Assembly (NCBI GenBank): GCA_005883215.1
Contig: VAYS01000040.1
Location: forward strand, 1 to 64,000
From: Actinomycetota bacterium
GTDB taxonomy: Bacteria; Actinomycetota; Thermoleophilia; Solirubrobacterales; Solirubrobacteraceae
Direction of reading: 5' to 3'
Length of the DNA: 64,000 nucleotides
In this document: in pieces, positions 1-16,674 of the stretch
Layout of the letters: every line of letters begins with the position of its first letter
Position numbering within the stretch: the first letter of the stretch is position 1
Program-made: the position numbers and the translations under genes
Notes under the pieces: model-generated
Told to the model about the DNA's origin: nothing
Seen by the model: the letters and a program-made list of their open reading frames with translations, nothing else
Database searches by the model: none

Positions 1-411
1 AGCCATGGCCGACGCGTCAAGCACCAGCACCACCGGGGCGCCGAGGAGTTTCGCCACCTGGGCGGTCGAGGCCCGCTCGGCCAGCGGCCCCACCCCGTCG
101 AACATGCCCATGACTCCCTCGATCAGCGCCAGGTCGCCACCCGCGGCGCCATGGGCGAACAGCCCGCCCACCAGGTCTTCGCCGACCAGGAAGGCGTCGA
201 GGTTTCGCGATGGGCGCCCGGCGGCCAGCGAGTGGTGTGAGGGATCGATGAAGTCCGGCCCGACCTTGAAGGGCGCTGTCCGCACGCCCCGAGCGTGCAG
301 GGCGGCGAGCAGGCCGGCCACGATCGTGGTCTTGCCCGAGCCTGAACCGGGCGCCGCCACGACCAGACGGGGTCCCAGCTTCGTGGTCACCGCGCCGGAC
401 GGTAGTACCAT
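1..411 (-). CDS. cobB: Cobyrinate a,c-diamide synthase, N-terminal part (cut by window edge)
   Basis: Reads leftward off the window; the visible 137 codons are the N-terminal ATPase part of a CobB/CbiA-type enzyme. This family uses ATP and glutamine to amidate the a and c side chains of (hydrogeno)cobyrinate in corrin ring synthesis in the cytoplasm. Residues about 14-25 read VVAAPGSGSGKTTI, the modified P-loop of the family. PFKVGPDFIDPSHH and LIEGVMGMFDG follow at the spacing expected for CobB/CbiA. The start chosen is the ATG at 411; a GTG six codons in is an alternative. The gene is divergent from the B12-riboswitch operon, so that riboswitch is on the wrong strand to control it. Whether CobB or CbiA specificity applies cannot be told from this part. 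Confidence 0.9.
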   Translation of the reverse strand, partial: MVLPSGAVTTKLGPRLVVAAPGSGSGKTTIVAGLLAALHARGVRTAPFKVGPDFIDPSHHSLAAGRPSRNLDAFLVGEDLVGGLFAHGAAGGDLALIEGVMGMFDGVGPLAERASTAQVAKLLGAPVVLVLDASAMA

Positions 412-423
412 CACTCGCCAAAG

Positions 424-585
424 ACGGTCGGTGGTCAAGGGAAGCCGGTGAGAAACCGGCGCGGACCCGCCACTGTGACCGGGGAAGTCCACCGCGTGCG
501 CGACGCGCAGCCACTGGGAGCCACCGGCGACTGGGAAGGCGCGGCAGATAGTCCCGGAAGCCAGGAGACCTGCCGCCGGCCACAA
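424..585 (+). ncRNA. Cobalamin (B12) riboswitch
   Basis: The conserved adenosylcobalamin aptamer core is legible: GGGAAGCCGGTGAGAAACCG near 455-474, then GCGGACCCGCCACTGTGACC at about 461-481 downstream of it, and the B12 box AGCCAGGAGACCTGCC around 559-574. It lies on the + strand immediately before the DUF4430/ECF operon, with a Shine-Dalgarno at 603-610 about 30 nt past the B12 box. No obvious U-tract terminator is seen between box and start codon, so control of translation start is the simpler guess. Exact ends are approximate. Confidence 0.93.
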
Positions 586-617
586 GCCGACAAGCCCTCG
601 TGGAAAGGGGTGGCTCT

Positions 618-1877
618 ATGCCAATCCAAGGAGCCTGTTCGCTTCGGCGAACGCACTTCGCCGTCGCGGTATGCGCCGCCGTGCTCACGGTGACGCTACT
701 GGGCGCGCTTCCGGCCGGCGCGCGAGCAACGACAGTCACCGTCCGCGTCGAAGGCGCGAACTCGACGCTGGTTCCGCTTACCCAGGTAACCGCACCCAGC
801 GCTCCGGTGAGCGGCGACGGCGGCGCCCACTCATGCCCGGGCAATACCGTCGCCGGCGCGCTCGACGCGGCCACGGCCCACAGCTGGTCGGGCACCTGGT
901 TCTCGTTCGGTGACTACCTGGTGGCAACGATCCTGGGCGAGACCCATGACTCCAACGCCTCCGACTCGGATGGCACCTACTGGGCCACGTGGACCAACCA
1001 CGCGTCCAACAACGGCGTGTGCAGCACCCCGCTCAACGAGGGCGACGACGAGCTCTTCTTCGTCGACTGCTTCAGATCACCCTGCGGTGTCGGGCAATCG
1101 CCCGCCGCGATCCTTGGATTAGGCGCTCCGGCCACGGCACAACAGGGCTCGCCGTTCTCGGTCAGCGTAACCGCCTATCCCTACGGCGGCGGAAGCCCCA
1201 GCGGCGCCTCGGGCGCCACGGTGACCGTCCGGCCCGGTGGCCAGACCTTCGCCACGGACTCTTCGGGCAACGCCAACGTCACCCTTGGATCCACGGGGTC
1301 GTTCACCCTGCAGGCGACCAAGTCCGGCGACCTGCGCTCCGAGACGCGCGGCGTTTGCGTGCACAACGGCAACGACGGCAACTGCGGCACCTCGTCCGCG
1401 ACCTCCGGGGGGTCGACCGGCTCCGCGGGGACCACGGCCGGCTCCACCAGCGGCTCGACCCCGGGGGGTCCGACCGCCGGGGGCGCCGCCTCGCCGCTGC
1501 TGAAGAACCCGGTCGCCCACATCACCGGGGTGCGGGAGGGTCGTCACTTCCGGCGCCGGCGGGGCCCGCGCGTGCTGACCGGGACGGTGATCCCCGACTC
1601 CTCGGGCCTGCGCGAGGTTCGGCTGCGCCTCGAGCGCAGGCACAACCGCCGCTGCCAGGGCTATGACGGGCGCCGCGAGCGCTTGCGGCCGATCCGCTGC
1701 GGCGCCCTGCACGCCCCGTGGTGGGGGATCGGGGCCCAGCGCCGGTTCTCCTACCTGTTGCCGTTCGCCCTGCCCAGCGGCCGCTATGTCCTGGACGTCG
1801 AGGCGATCTCGGCCGACGGGCGCCGCGACGACGTCCTCCAGCGCGGGCGCAACCGCATCGTGTTCTGGGTCGGGTAG
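618..1877 (+). CDS. Exported DUF4430 (transcobalamin C-terminal-like) protein with Ig-like and basic C-terminal domains
   Basis: First gene behind the B12 riboswitch, 419 residues. The ATG at 618 is preceded by GAAAGGGG at 603-610; an in-frame GTG at 600 is less likely because it would swallow that site. Residues about 10-35 form a signal peptide ending near GARA. Residues about 36-150 match the DUF4430 plan: a beta strand TVTVRVEG, an aLDAA helix, then YWATWTNHAS and NEGDDELFFVDCF. Next comes an Ig-like/invasin-type repeat (about 155-245), a Ser/Thr/Gly linker, and a 120-residue Arg-rich C-terminal domain that I do not recognise. In animals this fold is the C-terminal half of transcobalamin and contacts cobalamin. 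A role as an extracellular corrinoid-binding protein feeding the downstream ECF transporter is inferred from fold and riboswitch. Confidence 0.8.
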   Translation: MPIQGACSLRRTHFAVAVCAAVLTVTLLGALPAGARATTVTVRVEGANSTLVPLTQVTAPSAPVSGDGGAHSCPGNTVAGALDAATAHSWSGTWFSFGDYLVATILGETHDSNASDSDGTYWATWTNHASNNGVCSTPLNEGDDELFFVDCFRSPCGVGQSPAAILGLGAPATAQQGSPFSVSVTAYPYGGGSPSGASGATVTVRPGGQTFATDSSGNANVTLGSTGSFTLQATKSGDLRSETRGVCVHNGNDGNCGTSSATSGGSTGSAGTTAGSTSGSTPGGPTAGGAASPLLKNPVAHITGVREGRHFRRRRGPRVLTGTVIPDSSGLREVRLRLERRHNRRCQGYDGRRERLRPIRCGALHAPWWGIGAQRRFSYLLPFALPSGRYVLDVEAISADGRRDDVLQRGRNRIVFWVG

Positions 1878-1880
1878 TCG

Positions 1881-2681
1881 GTGGGGCGGGCTGGGCAGCG
1901 GCGGCTGGGCGCCTGGGTGGCCGGGTGGGTTGGGACCGCCGCGCTGGCGATCGGGGCGGGTCCGGCGATCTCGGCGGTCCCGGCCGTCGCGACCGCGTCT
2001 GCGACCGCTCCGGCAGCCAGGGTCCAGACGATGCTCGTCGGGCGCACGGCCACGCTGTTCGCTCCCGCGCGCGTGAGCGCGCGCGCGGGCCGGCTGCGGG
2101 TGGGGCGCCGCGTCTGTGCGGTGGCGGCCAACACGCCGCTGGCCGTCCTGATCGCTGCCCGTCGGCTCGGCGGGCCGGCCTTTCGCACGCGCGACTACGG
2201 CCACTGCACGCGCTCGGCGCGCAACGGCGGATCGCTGTTCGTCTACCAGGTCGGCCCGGACCGCAACCGGGGTCGCGACGGATGGGTCTACAAGGTGGAC
2301 GGCCACATCGGCACGACCGGGGCGGCCGATCCGGCGGGTCCGCTGGGGGACGGGCGGCGCCTGCGCGGCGGCCAGCGCGTTGTGTGGTTTTGGTGCACGC
2401 TGTCCGCGCGCGAGACGTGCCAGCCCACGCTGGAGCTGGCGCCGTCGGCGGCCCGGGTCGGTCCGGGCAGCCCGGTCCGGGTCGTGGTCCGGGCCGACGA
2501 CGACCTCGGCCGCCGCCGTCCCCAGCCCGGCGCGGTGGTCTCGCTGGGAACGGCGACCGCGGTCACGGCCGGCGACGGCAGCGCGACCGTGACCGCGCCG
2601 CCCGCGGCGGGCGCCTATCTCATCCGGGCCCGGGCCGCCGGTCTGGTCGACGCCTTCCCCGAGGAGCTGCGGGTCGGATGA
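1881..2681 (+). CDS. Exported DUF4430-like protein with Ig-like C-terminal domain
   Basis: 266 residues from a GTG three nucleotides after the previous stop, so translation is probably coupled. A hydrophobic stretch (about residues 10-40, AWVAGWVGTAALAIGAG) acts as signal peptide. The middle (about 50-175) carries GWVYKVDGHIG and a GQRVVWFW ending, which resemble the gWxYxVNG and GDxVxw signatures of DUF4430/transcobalamin C-terminal domains, but the domain is divergent and Cys-containing. The last 80 residues look like a beta-sandwich (SPVRVVVRAD to LVDAFPEELRVG) such as a bacterial Ig-like domain. Member of the riboswitch operon; corrinoid binding is inferred, not shown. Its stop overlaps the next start as ATGA. 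Confidence 0.72.
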   Translation: MGRAGQRRLGAWVAGWVGTAALAIGAGPAISAVPAVATASATAPAARVQTMLVGRTATLFAPARVSARAGRLRVGRRVCAVAANTPLAVLIAARRLGGPAFRTRDYGHCTRSARNGGSLFVYQVGPDRNRGRDGWVYKVDGHIGTTGAADPAGPLGDGRRLRGGQRVVWFWCTLSARETCQPTLELAPSAARVGPGSPVRVVVRADDDLGRRRPQPGAVVSLGTATAVTAGDGSATVTAPPAAGAYLIRARAAGLVDAFPEELRVG

Positions 2682-3613
2682 GGCGGCGGACGCGCGCCGG
2701 GCTGCTGCTGGCCGGCCTGCTGGCGGGGATCAGCGGCTGTGGCCTCGGGCCCGGCCGCACCCCCGGCGGGGTGGGTCTGGCGGTAACCGATGACTTCGGG
2801 CGGGCGACCGTCTTCGACTCCGGCGCCCCGCGCGTGTCGGGCCAGGACACCGTCATGCGCCTGCTGGAGCGCAATGTCACCATCACCACCCGCTACGGGG
2901 GCGGCTTCGTGCAGAGCATCGACGGACGCTCGGGCGGCCATGTCGCCGAGCGGCCGATCGACTGGTTCTACTACGTCAATGGCAGCGAGGCCGAAAAGGG
3001 CGCCGCCGCCACCGTCGTGCACCCGGGCGATCGTGTCTGGTGGGATCGCCACGACTGGGGCGCGGCGATGGACACCCCGGCTGTGGTGGGCTCCTTTCCC
3101 GAGCCCTTCCTGCATGGACGCGCCGGCCGGAGGCTGCCGGTCCGAGTCGATTGCCTCGGCGCCGACCCGGGACCCTGCCGGATGGTCGCCGAACGCCTGG
3201 GTGCCGCGGGGGTGCCCACGGTCGGGCGCGGGTCGCCCGGCCCGGCGGCGGGCGGGGCGAGCGCGCTGCGGGTGCTGGTGGGCGTCTGGCGCGCCCTGCG
3301 CCGCGATCCCACGGCCGCCCGTCTGGAGGGGGGACCGGTCAGCAGCGGCGTCTACGCGCGGCCGACCGCGTCGGGGGCGAGCATCGAGCTGCTCGACGAG
3401 CGTGGCCGTCGGGCGCAAGCCCTGGGTCCGGCCGGCGGTCTGGTGGCGGCCACACGCAGCGAGGGCGATATGCCGGTTTGGGTGGTCACCGGCACCGATT
3501 CGGCCGGGGTAAGGCAAGCGGCCGGCGCGCTGCGCCCCGAGGTGTTGCGCCACCGCTTCGCCGTGGCGGTGGGCCCGGGCGCCAGCGTGGCGCTGCCCGA
3601 GGCACCGCGATGA
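2678..3613 (+). CDS. DUF4430 lipoprotein
   Basis: 311 residues; the ATG overlaps the upstream stop (ATGA). The N-terminus is a lipoprotein signal, LLLAGLLAGISGC, with the lipobox Cys at about residue 21, so the mature protein should be anchored to the outer face of the membrane. Residues about 30-125 are the clearest DUF4430 match in the operon: VSGQDTVMRLLERN, then IDWFYYVNGSEAEKGAA and HPGDRVWWDRHDW. About 185 residues follow that I cannot assign. Being membrane-tethered and next to the ECF T subunit gene, it is the best candidate for the surface acceptor that hands a corrinoid to the transporter (inference). Stop and the next ATG overlap by 4 nt. Confidence 0.82.
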   Translation: MRRRTRAGLLLAGLLAGISGCGLGPGRTPGGVGLAVTDDFGRATVFDSGAPRVSGQDTVMRLLERNVTITTRYGGGFVQSIDGRSGGHVAERPIDWFYYVNGSEAEKGAAATVVHPGDRVWWDRHDWGAAMDTPAVVGSFPEPFLHGRAGRRLPVRVDCLGADPGPCRMVAERLGAAGVPTVGRGSPGPAAGGASALRVLVGVWRALRRDPTAARLEGGPVSSGVYARPTASGASIELLDERGRRAQALGPAGGLVAATRSEGDMPVWVVTGTDSAGVRQAAGALRPEVLRHRFAVAVGPGASVALPEAPR

Positions 3614-4503
3614 CCTACCACCGCCAGGCGACGCCCCTGCACGCGGCCCGGGTCGTCGCGGGGGGCGGGTTCTGCCTGGCGCTGGTCCTCTGCGCAGTCA
3701 TCGCGGATCACCCCCTCGTGCTGGGGGCTCTGCTGGTCGCCGTCCTGGGCGCGGGCGTCGGTGCTCGCTGCCTGGGAGAGCTAGGTCGGGTGCTGCGCTA
3801 CGCCCTTCCCCTGGCGCTGATCGCGGCGGCCCTCAACCCGTTGTTTTCTCATCAGGGGTTGACCGTCCTCGCGCGCCTGGGAGACGTGCCTCCGTTCGGC
3901 CAGCTCGATGTGACCCTCGAGGCACTCGTCTTCGGCGCGGTGTTCGCGCTCAAGCTGCTGGTGGTCGTGCTGGCTCTGGCCCTCCTGAGCAGCACCGTCG
4001 ATCCCGACGAGATGCTTCGCGTGGTGCGTCGCGTGTCGCTGCGCTCGGCGCTGACCGCGTCGCTGGCCACGCGAATGTGGACGGTGCTCGAACGCGACGC
4101 GCGACGGCTGGCCGAAGCCCGGCGCTGCCGAGCCGACTGGCGAGAGGGCGGCGCCGGACGCGCCGCCCGGGTGGCGGCGGCGGCGGTAGTGGTCCGCGCC
4201 GTGGCGGCCGGCGCGCTCGAGCGCGCGGTAGACGTAGCGGCCACCCTTGAGATCAGGGGCTACGGCTCGGTACGCCGGCCACCGAGGCACGCCTTGCCCT
4301 GGTCGCGGCACGACCTGGACTTCGCCTCCGCGGGGTTGGCGCTGGTGAGCTTGACCGTGGCCTCGCGACTGGCGGGCGTGGGGGACTTCGACACCTATCC
4401 GACCGTGCACGGCTCGGTGGGGCTCCCGGAGGGATTGCTGGTCGCCGTCCTGCTCGGGGTGGCGCTGCTCCCGTTCACCGATCGCCGGGGGGTGACGGGG
4501 TGA
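3610..4503 (+). CDS. ecfT: ECF transporter transmembrane T subunit (CbiQ/EcfT family)
   Basis: 297 residues with four to six hydrophobic spans (around 12-60, 65-80, 110-130, 235-255, 268-290). The long cytoplasmic region between about 130 and 230 carries the coupling motif LEIRGYGS (about 212-219), the counterpart of the family's A-R-G helix that docks on the ATPases. T subunits transmit ATP hydrolysis to a substrate-binding S subunit. ATGA overlap upstream and GTGA overlap downstream place it in one translationally coupled run with the double ATPase and the S subunit. Substrate is inferred to be a corrinoid from the riboswitch; nothing in this subunit specifies it. Confidence 0.9.
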   Translation: MTYHRQATPLHAARVVAGGGFCLALVLCAVIADHPLVLGALLVAVLGAGVGARCLGELGRVLRYALPLALIAAALNPLFSHQGLTVLARLGDVPPFGQLDVTLEALVFGAVFALKLLVVVLALALLSSTVDPDEMLRVVRRVSLRSALTASLATRMWTVLERDARRLAEARRCRADWREGGAGRAARVAAAAVVVRAVAAGALERAVDVAATLEIRGYGSVRRPPRHALPWSRHDLDFASAGLALVSLTVASRLAGVGDFDTYPTVHGSVGLPEGLLVAVLLGVALLPFTDRRGVTG

Positions 4504-6137
4504 GCGTCCTGTGCATGGAGCAGGTGACCTATGCCTATCCGGGCGCGCCGCGGCCGGCGCTGCGCAACCTGAGCCTGGAGCTGGCCGGGGGAGAGTTCTG
4601 CGTGCTGGCCGGAGGCTCCGCGTCGGGGAAATCGACCCTGCTGCGAGCCGCGTGCGGGCTGGTGCCGCATTTTTACGGGGGGGTGTTCAGCGGCCGGGTC
4701 ACGGTCGGCGACCTGGACTCCCGCGACCACGGACCCGACCACATGGCGCGCGTGACCGGCACGCTGCTCCAGGATCCCGAGACCCAAATCGTGATGAGCA
4801 CGGTGCGCGCCGAGCTGTCGCTGCCGCTGGAGAACCGCGGCTACCGTCCGGCCGCGGTGGCCCGCGGCGTAGAAGAGGTGGCCCTAGCCCTGGGCATCGA
4901 GAGCCTCCTGGACCGTTCAACGGCCACGCTGTCGGGGGGCGAGCTCCAGCGGGTCGCGCTAGGCGCCGCGCTCGCCGGACAGCCGCTGCTCATCCTCTTG
5001 GACGAGCCCACGTCCCAGCTCGATCCCGTCGCCGGCGACGAGCTGATCGGTTTACTGCGCCGGCTCAACGAGGAGTGGGGGACCACGGTGCTCCTGATCG
5101 AGCACCGGCTCGAGCGCTGTCTGGCCGCCGCCGATCGGGTGATCGCCCTCGTCGACGGGGCGATCGCCTGGGACGGCGATCCCGCCGGCTTTCAGGAATG
5201 GGCCGGTCGCGAGAGGGCAGAGCTCCAGACGCCGGCGGCGCGCCTGATCGCCGCGGCCGGGCTGCACCCGGCGCCGGTTGGGGTAAAGCAGGCGCGCGCC
5301 ATCCTGTGCGACCACGGGCTGGAGGCCGAGCCGGCCGGCGAGCCCGGCGGCGAGGCCCATTCCCGCCGGGGCGTCATGTCTCGCCGCCCGGGCCGCTGGC
5401 GTCGCCGTGCGAGGGGCGCCGAGCCCGCACTGGAGGTGCGGGGCCTGTGGCACGAGCTGCGCGCGGGCCCGGCGATCCTGCGGGGCGTGAATCTGACCTT
5501 GGCGGCGGGGGAGCGGGTAGCCCTCATGGGCCGAAACGGAGCGGGGAAGTCCACCCTCCTTCGCCACGCCAACGGGCTGCTGTCGCCCACCCGCGGACGG
5601 CTGCACCGCGCCGGGCGCGTCGCGCTGCTGCTCCAGAACCCGGGCGACTACTTCCTGCACGAGCGGGTGGGGGAGGAGGCCCCGCCCGACGCGCTCGCCC
5701 TGGTCGGGCTCGACGGCATGGCGGATCGTCACCCGCGCGACCTCTCGGGCGGCGAACGCCAGCGCCTGGCCTTGGCCGTCGTCCTCGGCGCCGGGGACCG
5801 ACCGGCGAGCGTGGTGGCGCTCGATGAACCCACGCGGGGGATGGACCGGGGCTCCAAGGCCGAGCTCGCCGAGCGCCTGGGCGGGCTGGCCCGGCGCGGG
5901 GCGGCGGTGCTGGTGGCCACGCACGAGGTCGAGTTCGCGGCGTCGTTCGCCGAGCGGGTGGTGCTGCTCGCCGAGGGCCGCGTGATCGCCGACGCCGAGG
6001 CGCGCGAGGTGCTGGCGGGGGGCTGGTATTTCGCCACCGAGACCGCGCGCATCCTGGGCGGGGAGGGCGGCGCGGTGCGGCCCGAGCAGGGGGCGGAGCT
6101 GCTGCGCCGGCGGCTGAGGCTGGAGGTGGCGGGGTGA
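4500..6137 (+). CDS. ecfA: ECF transporter ATPase, two ABC domains fused (EcfA-EcfA')
   Basis: 545 residues containing two complete ABC ATPase units in one chain. First unit: Walker A GGSASGKST (about 38-46), signature LSGGELQR (about 143-150), Walker B LILLDEPTSQLD (about 164). A 60-residue Arg/Glu-rich linker follows. Second unit: Walker A GRNGAGKST (about 344-352), signature LSGGERQR (about 415) and VVALDEPT (about 438). The second unit is shortened between the Q-loop (QNPGDYFLHERVGEE) and the signature compared with typical EcfA. Starts at a GTG overlapping the ecfT stop (GTGA). Couples ATP hydrolysis to uptake through EcfT and the S subunit encoded immediately downstream. Confidence 0.93.
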   Translation: MSVLCMEQVTYAYPGAPRPALRNLSLELAGGEFCVLAGGSASGKSTLLRAACGLVPHFYGGVFSGRVTVGDLDSRDHGPDHMARVTGTLLQDPETQIVMSTVRAELSLPLENRGYRPAAVARGVEEVALALGIESLLDRSTATLSGGELQRVALGAALAGQPLLILLDEPTSQLDPVAGDELIGLLRRLNEEWGTTVLLIEHRLERCLAAADRVIALVDGAIAWDGDPAGFQEWAGRERAELQTPAARLIAAAGLHPAPVGVKQARAILCDHGLEAEPAGEPGGEAHSRRGVMSRRPGRWRRRARGAEPALEVRGLWHELRAGPAILRGVNLTLAAGERVALMGRNGAGKSTLLRHANGLLSPTRGRLHRAGRVALLLQNPGDYFLHERVGEEAPPDALALVGLDGMADRHPRDLSGGERQRLALAVVLGAGDRPASVVALDEPTRGMDRGSKAELAERLGGLARRGAAVLVATHEVEFAASFAERVVLLAEGRVIADAEAREVLAGGWYFATETARILGGEGGAVRPEQGAELLRRRLRLEVAG

Positions 6138-7915
6138 GCTGGCCCGTTGCCTCGCTGATCCTGCTGGGGCTGGCCCTGGTCGGCGGGTTTGCTTGGTATG
6201 AGCGCTCCCGTCCGTCTTCGCGCACCGTCGCCCTGGTGGCGACGCTGGCCGCCCTGGCCGCGCTGGGCCGGGTGGCGTTCGGGGCGATCCCTGACGTCAA
6301 GCCCACTACCGACATAGTGCTGCTGTCGGGCTATGCCCTGGGCGGGGCGCCCGGCTTCGTCATCGGGGCGCTGGCGGCGCTGACGTCGAACCTGTTCTTC
6401 GGCCAAGGGCCCTGGACCCCGTGGCAGATGTTCGCCTGGGGATCGGCGGGTGTGCTGGGCGCCGGGCTGGCAACCGTCGGCGGACGGCGCCTGGGCAGGG
6501 TCCCGCTGGCGATCGCCTGCGCGGTGATGGGCCTGCTATTCGGGGCGATCATGAACCTGTTCACCTGGACGGACACCGGGGCCGGCAACCTCAACCAGTA
6601 CCTGGTCATTTCCGGCCAGGCGCTGCCCTTCGACCTCACCCACGCCGCCGCCAACCTGGCCTTCTGCCTGGCCTTCGGGCCGGCGCTGGTGCGGGCTCTG
6701 GGTCGCTTCCGGGCGCGCTTTGAGATCGTCTGGCGCCCGGCGGGAGCGGCGCCGGTCGCCGTCGCGCTGGCGCTGGTGGCCGCTGCCGCGCTGGTGCCCG
6801 CCCGGGCGCAGGCGGCACGCGATCCGACGGCTGCGCGGGCCACCTCCTACCTCCTGCGGGCCCAGAACGCCGACGGCGGATTCGGCGCGGCGCGGGGAGA
6901 GTCATCGACCCAGATGTACAGCGCCTGGGTCGCCCTGGGGCTGGCCGCGGCGGGACGCGACCCCAGCGCCGTAGCGCACGCCGGGCACTCGGTGACCGAC
7001 TACATCGTGGCCACGGGCCGCGACGTGACGAGCATCGGGGACATCGAGCGGACGGTCCTCGCGCTGCGCGCGGGCGGCAGGCCCGCCCGCCTGTCGGGCC
7101 GCGACCTGGTCGGCGAGGTGCTGCGGCGCCAGTCGGCGCGGGGCGACTTCGGAGGCCAGGTCAACTACACCGCCTTTGCCATCCTCGCCCTTCGGGCCGC
7201 GGGTCGATCGGCGCACGACGCCGCGCTGCGCCGAGCGCGGCGTTGGCTGGAGCGCGAGCCTGACGCCGACGGCGGATTCAACTTCCTCGCCCGCGGCGGT
7301 GCCAGTGACATCGACGACACCGCCGGAGCGGTGGAGGCATTGGTCGCCGCGGGGGGGCGCGGGGTGAAGGCGGTGCGATCCGCGCTGGGCTTCCTGGCGC
7401 ACCGCCAGAATCCCGACGGAGGCTTTCCCCTGCAGCCCGGGGGGTCCTCCAACGCGCAGTCCACCGCCTGGGCGATCCAGGCGCTGATCGCCGGCGGGCG
7501 CGATCCCGCCCGCGTGCACCGGCGGGGCGGACGCTCGCCCCTGGGCTTCCTGCGCTCGCTGTCGGCTCCCGACGGGTCGATCCGCTATTCGCGCACCAGC
7601 GCGCAGACCCCGGTGTGGGTCACCGGCCAAGCCCTGACCGCGCTCGCCGGGCGGCCGTTCCCGATCCGGGCCCGACCGGGGTGGGGCCACGCCCGGGCCC
7701 GCGCCCGCGGCGCCAGCTCCTCCGCTTCTGCCGCCGCGGGCACGGGTCGTTCCTCGCCCCCGACCACGGGCGCCCGCGGCGCGCGCCGCGCGGGCGCCGG
7801 AGCCGGGCGGGGGCCGGGTTCGGCGCTCGGCGGGCTCGCGCTGCAGCGGCGGCTGGCCGTGGTGGTGCAGGCCGTGCGGGCGGTGGAGGGGATGCTCGCG
7901 GTGATGCTCGACTAG
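6134..7915 (+). CDS. ECF S subunit fused to an alpha/alpha-toroid (prenyltransferase/squalene-cyclase-type repeats)
   Basis: 593 residues from a GTG overlapping the ecfA stop. Residues about 1-200 form an integral-membrane S-component-like domain of about six helices (LILLGLALVGGFAWY at the N-terminus; IPDVKPTTDIVLLSGYALGG resembles S-component loops). A further hydrophobic span (about 205-228) ends in PARAQA, suggesting the rest is outside the cell. Residues about 235-515 hold at least five alpha/alpha repeats with xxDGGF turns: NADGGFGAARG, GDFGGQVNYT, DADGGFNFLARG, NPDGGFPLQPGG and APDGSIRYSR. These are typical of the terpene-cyclase/prenyltransferase toroid, which is also the N-terminal fold of transcobalamin. 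No cyclase DxDD motif is present. An Arg/Ala/Ser-rich tail ends the protein. Proposed role: membrane receptor plus external corrinoid-binding barrel (inference). Confidence 0.85.
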   Translation: MSWPVASLILLGLALVGGFAWYERSRPSSRTVALVATLAALAALGRVAFGAIPDVKPTTDIVLLSGYALGGAPGFVIGALAALTSNLFFGQGPWTPWQMFAWGSAGVLGAGLATVGGRRLGRVPLAIACAVMGLLFGAIMNLFTWTDTGAGNLNQYLVISGQALPFDLTHAAANLAFCLAFGPALVRALGRFRARFEIVWRPAGAAPVAVALALVAAAALVPARAQAARDPTAARATSYLLRAQNADGGFGAARGESSTQMYSAWVALGLAAAGRDPSAVAHAGHSVTDYIVATGRDVTSIGDIERTVLALRAGGRPARLSGRDLVGEVLRRQSARGDFGGQVNYTAFAILALRAAGRSAHDAALRRARRWLEREPDADGGFNFLARGGASDIDDTAGAVEALVAAGGRGVKAVRSALGFLAHRQNPDGGFPLQPGGSSNAQSTAWAIQALIAGGRDPARVHRRGGRSPLGFLRSLSAPDGSIRYSRTSAQTPVWVTGQALTALAGRPFPIRARPGWGHARARARGASSSASAAAGTGRSSPPTTGARGARRAGAGAGRGPGSALGGLALQRRLAVVVQAVRAVEGMLAVMLD

Positions 7916-14806: not shown

Positions 14807-14927
14807 CGAGCCCCGATCCTACCCTGCCCGGCTGCGGACCGGCGGGCGCCGGCGATAGCAGCCCCCGGGGCCGAGCCGGCGCCGTCGACGCCCGGGCCCG
14901 GGCGCTATCGTGCGCCACGCACCGCAT

Positions 14928-16674
<1,747 letters not shown>

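What the first reader, a model, noticed from the sequence alone, without database searches (positions are those of the whole stretch)
424..7915. A split bacterial transcobalamin attached to an ECF transporter, under a B12 riboswitch
One operon behind a clear cobalamin riboswitch encodes three exported proteins with DUF4430-like regions, a complete ECF energising module, and an S subunit carrying an alpha/alpha toroid. Established knowledge: animal transcobalamin and intrinsic factor consist of an alpha6/alpha6 barrel joined to a small beta domain, and the latter is the fold represented by DUF4430. Here both halves occur in separate chains, one membrane-fused and one lipid-anchored. Inference: the two halves close over a corrinoid outside the cell and pass it to the ECF S domain, replacing BtuF-BtuCD. 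No btuF, btuC or btuD is in the window.
Basis: partly seen in the sequence, partly recalled or inferred. Interest (0 to 1): 0.88.

Follow-up and report, generated by a model that had tools for sequence, protein, structure and literature searches.

The report
Two-part bacterial vitamin B12 importer
A bacterium carries what looks like a vitamin B12 import operon in which the two halves of a human-type B12 carrier protein sit on separate chains, one of them joined to the membrane transporter; the kind was predicted in 2007, but this arrangement makes the B12-binding step testable.

Summary
A cobalamin riboswitch (415-591, 74.3 bits) precedes six genes: three exported proteins with DUF4430-like regions (one firm, two weak), EcfT, a double ECF ATPase, and an S subunit fused to an alpha/alpha toroid. 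The S domain matches L. delbrueckii CbrT, a proven B12 importer (profile E=5.6e-26; next solved chain 0.1). Of 61 class genomes, 28 carry this S domain: 24 have the riboswitch upstream, the other 4 stop at contig ends; all 28 carry DUF4430, against 1 of 33 others. Riboswitch-linked BtuC-type permeases occur in 13 of those 33 but 1 of the 28. The window's genome shows no FecCD permease and no CbiC. In 34 of 80 named loci (mostly Firmicutes) toroid and DUF4430 share one chain, and one such chain's predicted fold has B12 carriers as its first 15 PDB matches; in 26 the toroid is fused to S; none has both. The B12/ECF/split-carrier idea is well supported as inference; clamping of a corrinoid and hand-over are untested. 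It is not new in kind: Burroughs et al. 2007 predicted bacterial transcobalamin-like proteins beside CbiQ/CbiO. Not found there: toroid-S fusion, CbrT link, riboswitch, BtuFCD exclusion.

The parts
1..405 (-). 5' part of cobB (cobyrinate a,c-diamide synthase), divergent, cut by contig edge
   Evidence: NCBIfam NF002204 172.9 bits, profile positions 2-125 of 420; contig starts at window base 1
415..591 (+). cobalamin riboswitch
   Evidence: RF00174, 74.3 bits
618..1877 (+). P1: exported protein, divergent DUF4430-like region (res. about 63-153)
   Evidence: hydrophobic N-terminus; no PF14478 match; 24.2 bits with the profile grown from relatives
1881..2681 (+). P2: exported protein, divergent DUF4430-like region
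   Evidence: hydrophobic N-terminus; PF14478 12 bits, below cut-off; 27.2 bits with the grown profile
2678..3613 (+). P3: predicted lipoprotein, DUF4430 (res. 57-123) plus a conserved C-terminal region of unknown fold
   Evidence: PF14478 49.4 bits; lipobox-like ISGC read in the sequence; C-terminal region found in 45 other loci
3610..4503 (+). EcfT (CbiQ-like)
   Evidence: PF02361 52 bits
4500..6137 (+). fused double ECF ATPase
   Evidence: PF00005, two stretches; TIGR04520 best NCBIfam match, below its own cut-off
6134..6760 (+). S domain, CbrT-like
   Evidence: 6fnp_A E=5.4e-15 by phmmer, 5.6e-26 by profile
6740..6796 (+). hydrophobic segment (res. about 203-221) before the toroid: extra membrane helix or former signal peptide
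   Evidence: hydropathy; helix 206-219 in the model; signal-like starts, by eye, in 9 of 10 separate toroid ORFs printed
6815..7693 (+). alpha/alpha toroid
   Evidence: PF13243/PF00432; model pLDDT mostly above 95; Z 27.4 to squalene-hopene cyclase, 21.5 to intrinsic factor

Best explanation
A riboswitch-controlled ECF-type corrinoid (B12) importer. Shown by sequence: riboswitch, ECF module, CbrT-like S domain, firm DUF4430 in a predicted lipoprotein, toroid joined to the S domain after an extra hydrophobic helix. Inferred: when B12 is low the operon is switched on; outside the membrane the lipid-anchored DUF4430 protein(s) and the toroid of the S subunit enclose a corrinoid as the two halves of transcobalamin do, and release it to the S domain, which carries it across with EcfT and the ATPases. 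It takes the place of BtuFCD in an organism that seems to lack corrin-ring synthesis.
For: Riboswitch; 24 of 28 S genes in 61 class genomes have it within 7 kb upstream on the same strand, against roughly 0.06 expected by chance (assuming 2.8 Mb genomes); the other 4 stop at contig ends, and those genomes have riboswitch-led DUF4430 genes on other contigs. CbrT match. PF14478 in 28 of 28 S genomes, 1 of 33 others. FecCD within 4 kb behind a riboswitch in 13 of 33 non-S genomes, 1 of 28 S genomes; no FecCD and no CbiC match in the window's genome, yet 3 B12-binding domains. Toroid and DUF4430 on one chain in 34 of 80 named loci; one such chain (L117) has haptocorrin, transcobalamin and intrinsic factor as the first 15 PDB rows, E 1.6e-10 to 9.2e-8, next 1.8e-5. 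In four genomes of family f3 toroid and DUF4430 lie together behind their own riboswitch, away from the S gene (L147, L148, L149, L152), and in a fifth behind a second riboswitch just downstream of it (L058).
Against: No binding or transport data. The DUF4430 profile reached no transcobalamin in the PDB by sequence at E up to 10, and the joined-chain profile none among the 60 of 63 rows shown. The window toroid's best structural matches are terpene cyclases. For L117 the TM-scores to carriers are only 0.41-0.48 with rmsd about 24 A, so the two domains are placed differently. 8 of 64 well-covered named loci have no toroid in the locus, 15 of 64 no riboswitch upstream. 9 of 28 S genomes carry a strong FecCD somewhere, and one (G056) has it behind a riboswitch. 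Fisher tests do not correct for relatedness.
Confidence: 0.75

Rival explanations
1. Same machine, but the natural cargo is a corrinoid precursor (cobinamide or cobyrinate) that the cell finishes itself.
For: cobB is the divergent neighbour while no CbiC was found; CbrT of L. delbrueckii takes both cobalamin and cobinamide (PMC5997447, passages); salvage of cobinamide and cobyrinate is described in PMC6593275 (passages).
Against: cobB is cut by the contig edge, and other late cob genes were not searched; a CbrT-like transporter may take all of these.
Confidence: 0.3
2. The toroid is cut from the S domain by signal peptidase (an AQA-A site at about residue 225-228, read by eye), so it works as a free extracytoplasmic chain.
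For: In relatives the toroid is a separate gene with a signal-like start, by eye in 9 of 10 ORFs printed; residues 201-230 of the model are poorly defined, block means 50-63.
Against: The joined form is kept in 26 of 80 named loci.
Confidence: 0.25
3. The toroid is an enzyme of the class II terpene cyclase kind, not a ligand clamp.
For: Best structural matches are squalene-hopene cyclase and drimenyl diphosphate synthase; the window copy reads DIDDTA, like the DXDD motif of that class (motif recalled).
Against: DXDD is complete in 23 of 149 toroid rows, at least 15 rows with gaps there included; the 4th position is often S, T, M or I. It travels with B12 transport genes and in 34 of 80 loci shares a chain with DUF4430.
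Confidence: 0.05
4. A cobalt transporter under B12 control.
For: EcfT matches CbiQ.
Against: The S domain is CbrT-like; S genomes mostly lack CbiC (present in 2 of 28 against 15 of 33).
Confidence: 0.04

Closest known systems
Bacterial transcobalamin-like SLBB proteins (Burroughs et al. 2007, PMC1796856; abstract and sections 5, 7, 8, 11 read)
   Same: DUF4430/SLBB-type domains, toroids, operons with CbiO and CbiQ, proposed B12 scavenging, several SLBB proteins in one operon, hosts usually lacking B12 synthesis
   Different: There toroid and SLBB are fused on one chain; here they are on separate chains with the toroid on the S subunit. The words riboswitch, CbrT, S component and BtuF do not occur in its main text
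ECF-CbrT of Lactobacillus delbrueckii (PMC5997447, passages; PDB 6fnp)
   Same: CbrT-like S domain, EcfT, ECF ATPases
   Different: The solved CbrT chain has 182 residues and no toroid, and shares its ECF module with other S components. DUF4430 and lipoprotein do not occur in the main text; a neighbouring gene cbrS is named without description in the passage seen
Animal transcobalamin / intrinsic factor / haptocorrin
   Same: toroid fold and a DUF4430-type C-terminal domain (the latter stated for vertebrate TCN in PMC4350170, passage)
   Different: those are single secreted chains taken up by receptors (recalled); here two or more chains anchored at a transporter
BtuFCD
   Same: presumed role; the alternative riboswitch-led partner in related genomes
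   Different: unrelated to ECF-CbrT (PMC5997447 abstract); no FecCD match in this genome

Membership tests
Cobalamin riboswitch RF00174 | covariance-model score above gathering | tested here: met
   74.3 against 31.5 bits
ECF transporter | EcfT, two ECF ATPases and an S component encoded together | tested here: met
CbrT cobalamin S components | sequence relation to CbrT rather than to other solved S components | tested here: met
   6fnp E=5.6e-26, next 4hzu_S 0.1; unsolved S families could not be compared
CbrT cobalamin S components | binds and transports cobalamin/cobinamide | not testable with these tools
   needs assay
DUF4430 (PF14478), P3 | score above Pfam gathering | tested here: met
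   49.4 against 23.8 bits
DUF4430 (PF14478), P1 and P2 | score above Pfam gathering | tested here: not met
   no match; 12 bits
Transcobalamin / intrinsic factor / haptocorrin | toroid and beta domain on one secreted chain | tested here: not met
   separate chains in the window; one chain in relatives such as L117
Transcobalamin / intrinsic factor / haptocorrin | toroid fold like the carriers' | tested here: inconclusive
   window toroid: intrinsic factor 2pmv Z 21.5, 233 residues, rmsd 3.0, but squalene-hopene cyclase Z 27.4
Transcobalamin / intrinsic factor / haptocorrin | binds cobalamin between the two domains | not testable with these tools
   needs assay or structure
Class II terpene cyclase | conserved DXDD motif | tested here: not met
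   as a family: 23 of 149 toroid rows; the window copy itself has it
BtuFCD | FecCD-family permease | tested here: not met
   0 matches in the 92.9% complete genome; BtuF and BtuD not searched on their own

The most novel reading that the evidence does not exclude
A domain-swap series at one kind of locus: the presumed B12-holding toroid sits on the DUF4430 chain in many Firmicutes, is a free exported protein in other families of the window's class, and is joined to the CbrT-type S subunit in the window's order. The last would be an ECF transporter whose S subunit carries half of its own substrate-binding protein, the other half coming from a lipoprotein, so that closing of the carrier and docking to the transporter are one event.
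Probability: 0.55. Interest if true: 0.75.

Novelty: new variant of a known kind. Interest (0 to 1): 0.62.

Why it matters
ECF transporters are generally taken to bind substrate in the S subunit alone (recalled). A system with a dedicated extracellular two-chain binder, part of it tethered to the S subunit, would change that picture and raises a direct question for the reorientation of S subunits in the membrane. It would account for B12 import in genomes without a riboswitch-linked BtuFCD, offers a natural two-part version of transcobalamin for dissecting how the halves share the ligand, and bears on the 2007 proposal that animals obtained their B12 carriers from bacteria (PMC1796856, abstract).

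Tried and rejected
Sequence-only link of DUF4430 to solved transcobalamin: profile A5 gave no carrier at E up to 10; the joined-chain profile ranks cyclases first and shows no carrier in 60 of 63 rows. Foldseek with the window S-toroid model shows no carrier in the 50 rows displayed; the second look lists intrinsic factor at rank 34; the S domain was barely tested by either. Single-strand folding of the riboswitch with the start region is uninformative (z -0.41). A home-made riboswitch pattern was dropped for covariance-model positions. Anti-phage models: no match for P1, P3 and P6. Riboswitches were placed on the 80 named loci by record coordinates with a short motif check, because contig numbers could not be tied to names; the 17 well-covered loci that seemed to lack one were re-scanned with Rfam, which added L113 (34.1 bits) and L129.

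Considered and rejected: cobalt importer; enzyme toroid; chance neighbourhood.

Papers: PMC1796856 abstract and sections 5, 7, 8, 11; PMC5997447, PMC2667541, PMC4350170, PMC8123684, PMC6593275, PMC1949818 passages only; others as search listings. No paper in the held library was seen to combine these features in searches; most subscription papers (including a 2009 ECF survey by Rodionov et al., known to me only by recall and citation) are not held, so absence from print is not claimed.
Full report
What is there. A cobalamin riboswitch (415-591) is followed by six closely packed genes on the same strand (618-7915). They encode two exported proteins with divergent DUF4430-like regions, a predicted lipoprotein with a firm DUF4430 domain, EcfT, a double ECF ATPase, and an S subunit with a C-terminal alpha/alpha toroid. 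cobB lies divergently and is cut by the contig edge. The nearest named relatives are Solirubrobacterales records, so the window is probably from that order (inference).

Substrate. The S domain (profile of 28 sequences, window included) matches CbrT of L. delbrueckii at 5.6e-26 and the next solved chain at 0.1; a lactobacillar member of the same locus type (L135) also matches CbrT, at 2.3e-12. CbrT transports cobalamin and cobinamide (PMC5997447, passages).

Regulation and co-occurrence. Of 61 genomes of the class, 28 have the S domain and 5 more only a toroid-like match. 24 of the 28 S genes have a riboswitch within 7 kb upstream on the same strand; roughly 0.06 would be expected by chance. 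The other four (G011, G014, G053, G057) lie at contig ends; in each of these genomes a DUF4430 gene lies behind a riboswitch on another contig. PF14478 is in 28 of 28 S genomes and 1 of 33 others. In a draw of 198 genomes of the phylum 35 have PF14478; of the 25 outside the first set, 11 have a riboswitch above the Rfam threshold upstream on the same contig and strand, 6 one below threshold, 8 none there (gene maps drawn for 20 of the 25). Sister genomes were treated as independent in every test.

Alternative to BtuFCD. Strong FecCD permeases (E below 1e-60) occur in 30 of 61 genomes, 9 of them S genomes; FecCD within 4 kb behind a riboswitch occurs in 14 genomes, of which 1 (G056) has the S domain (13 of 33 against 1 of 28, Fisher p=0.0008). 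The window's genome has no FecCD match, no CbiC and three B12-binding domains. CbiC is in 2 of 28 S genomes and 15 of 33 others. So this looks like an importer in a B12-using organism that cannot make the corrin ring by the usual route, with the caution that the genome is 92.9% complete and that BtuF and BtuD were not searched on their own.

Two halves. In 34 of 80 named loci (36 chains) toroid and DUF4430 share one chain; in 26 the toroid is fused to the S subunit; no locus has both. In family f3 toroid and DUF4430 form a riboswitch-led unit away from the S gene in four genomes (L147, L148, L149, L152), while in L150 and L151 only DUF4430 was found there; in L058 the pair follows a second riboswitch just downstream of the S gene. 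The predicted fold of one single-chain member (L117, a Peptococcaceae record, 406 residues, pLDDT 91.0) has haptocorrin, transcobalamin and intrinsic factor as the first 15 PDB rows (E 1.6e-10 to 9.2e-8; next 1.8e-5; TM 0.41-0.48); by the second aligner haptocorrin covers 335 residues from 5 to 402 at Z 19.1, but with rmsd 24.1, so the two domains match in order and not in relative placement, and cyclases matching the toroid alone score higher, up to Z 22.1. That vertebrate carriers end in a DUF4430 domain is stated in PMC4350170 (passage).

Window protein. The S-toroid model (520 residues, pLDDT 91.9) has the S helices, an extra helix, a poorly defined linker and a toroid. The toroid matches squalene-hopene cyclase best (Z 27.4) and intrinsic factor at Z 21.5 over 233 residues. 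The DXDD motif is complete in 23 of 149 toroid rows, gapped rows included, which speaks against an enzyme family. 9 of 10 separate toroid ORFs printed show a signal-like start by eye (no predictor was run), so the extra helix is probably a former signal peptide that puts the toroid outside; it may still be cut.

DUF4430. All 39 aligned domains, chosen by me from 84 high-scoring ones plus the window's, match PF14478; one aromatic column (F in 30, Y in 9) and one tryptophan column (39 of 39) are conserved. A conserved aromatic in the extra hairpin was named as important for ligand binding in PMC1949818 (passage); that it is this column is my inference. P1 reads GDYLV and P2 SLFVY at the place I take to correspond.

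What is known. Burroughs et al. 2007 proposed bacterial transcobalamin-like proteins, joined to toroids and encoded with CbiO/CbiQ, as B12 scavengers. The present case is therefore a new variant: split chains, toroid on the S subunit, CbrT relation of the S domain, riboswitch, and exclusion of riboswitch-linked BtuFCD.

How sure. B12-type importer: about 0.9. Split-carrier mechanism as stated: about 0.6 to 0.65. Overall 0.75 for the statement given, whose inferred steps are marked.

Noticed in passing
window 14924-16214: TPP riboswitch (59.3 bits) directly before a thiC-like ORF (named by eye) whose end reads as if frame-shifted near 15990; assembly error or damage not decided.
   Followed up: no
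window 3080-3610 (P3 C-terminal region): Region of unknown fold after DUF4430, no Pfam match, found in 45 other loci including Firmicutes.
   Followed up: partly
L137, L138, L181: ATPase and S domain appear in one open frame (stop to stop), a possible ATPase-S fusion.
   Followed up: no
L124, L131, L140: Records titled as archaea with DUF4430, EcfT, ATPase and S, but no toroid and no riboswitch found.
   Followed up: no
L078: Conexibacter copy of the operon without a detected riboswitch, although 8 matches (7 above cut-off) lie in its genome.
   Followed up: no
G004, G006, G012, G016, G018, G024 and 14 others: 20 of 61 class genomes have neither this S domain nor riboswitch-linked FecCD, though 19 of the 20 carry a cobalamin riboswitch: another B12 transporter, or synthesis.
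   Followed up: no
L074, L091: Records titled Bifidobacterium breve and Chlamydiae carry near copies of the Solirubrobacterales operon; perhaps mislabelled bins.
   Followed up: no
G026: Only class genome with DUF4430 but no S-domain match; two copies on a contig with a riboswitch on the opposite strand; genome in about 460 contigs.
   Followed up: no
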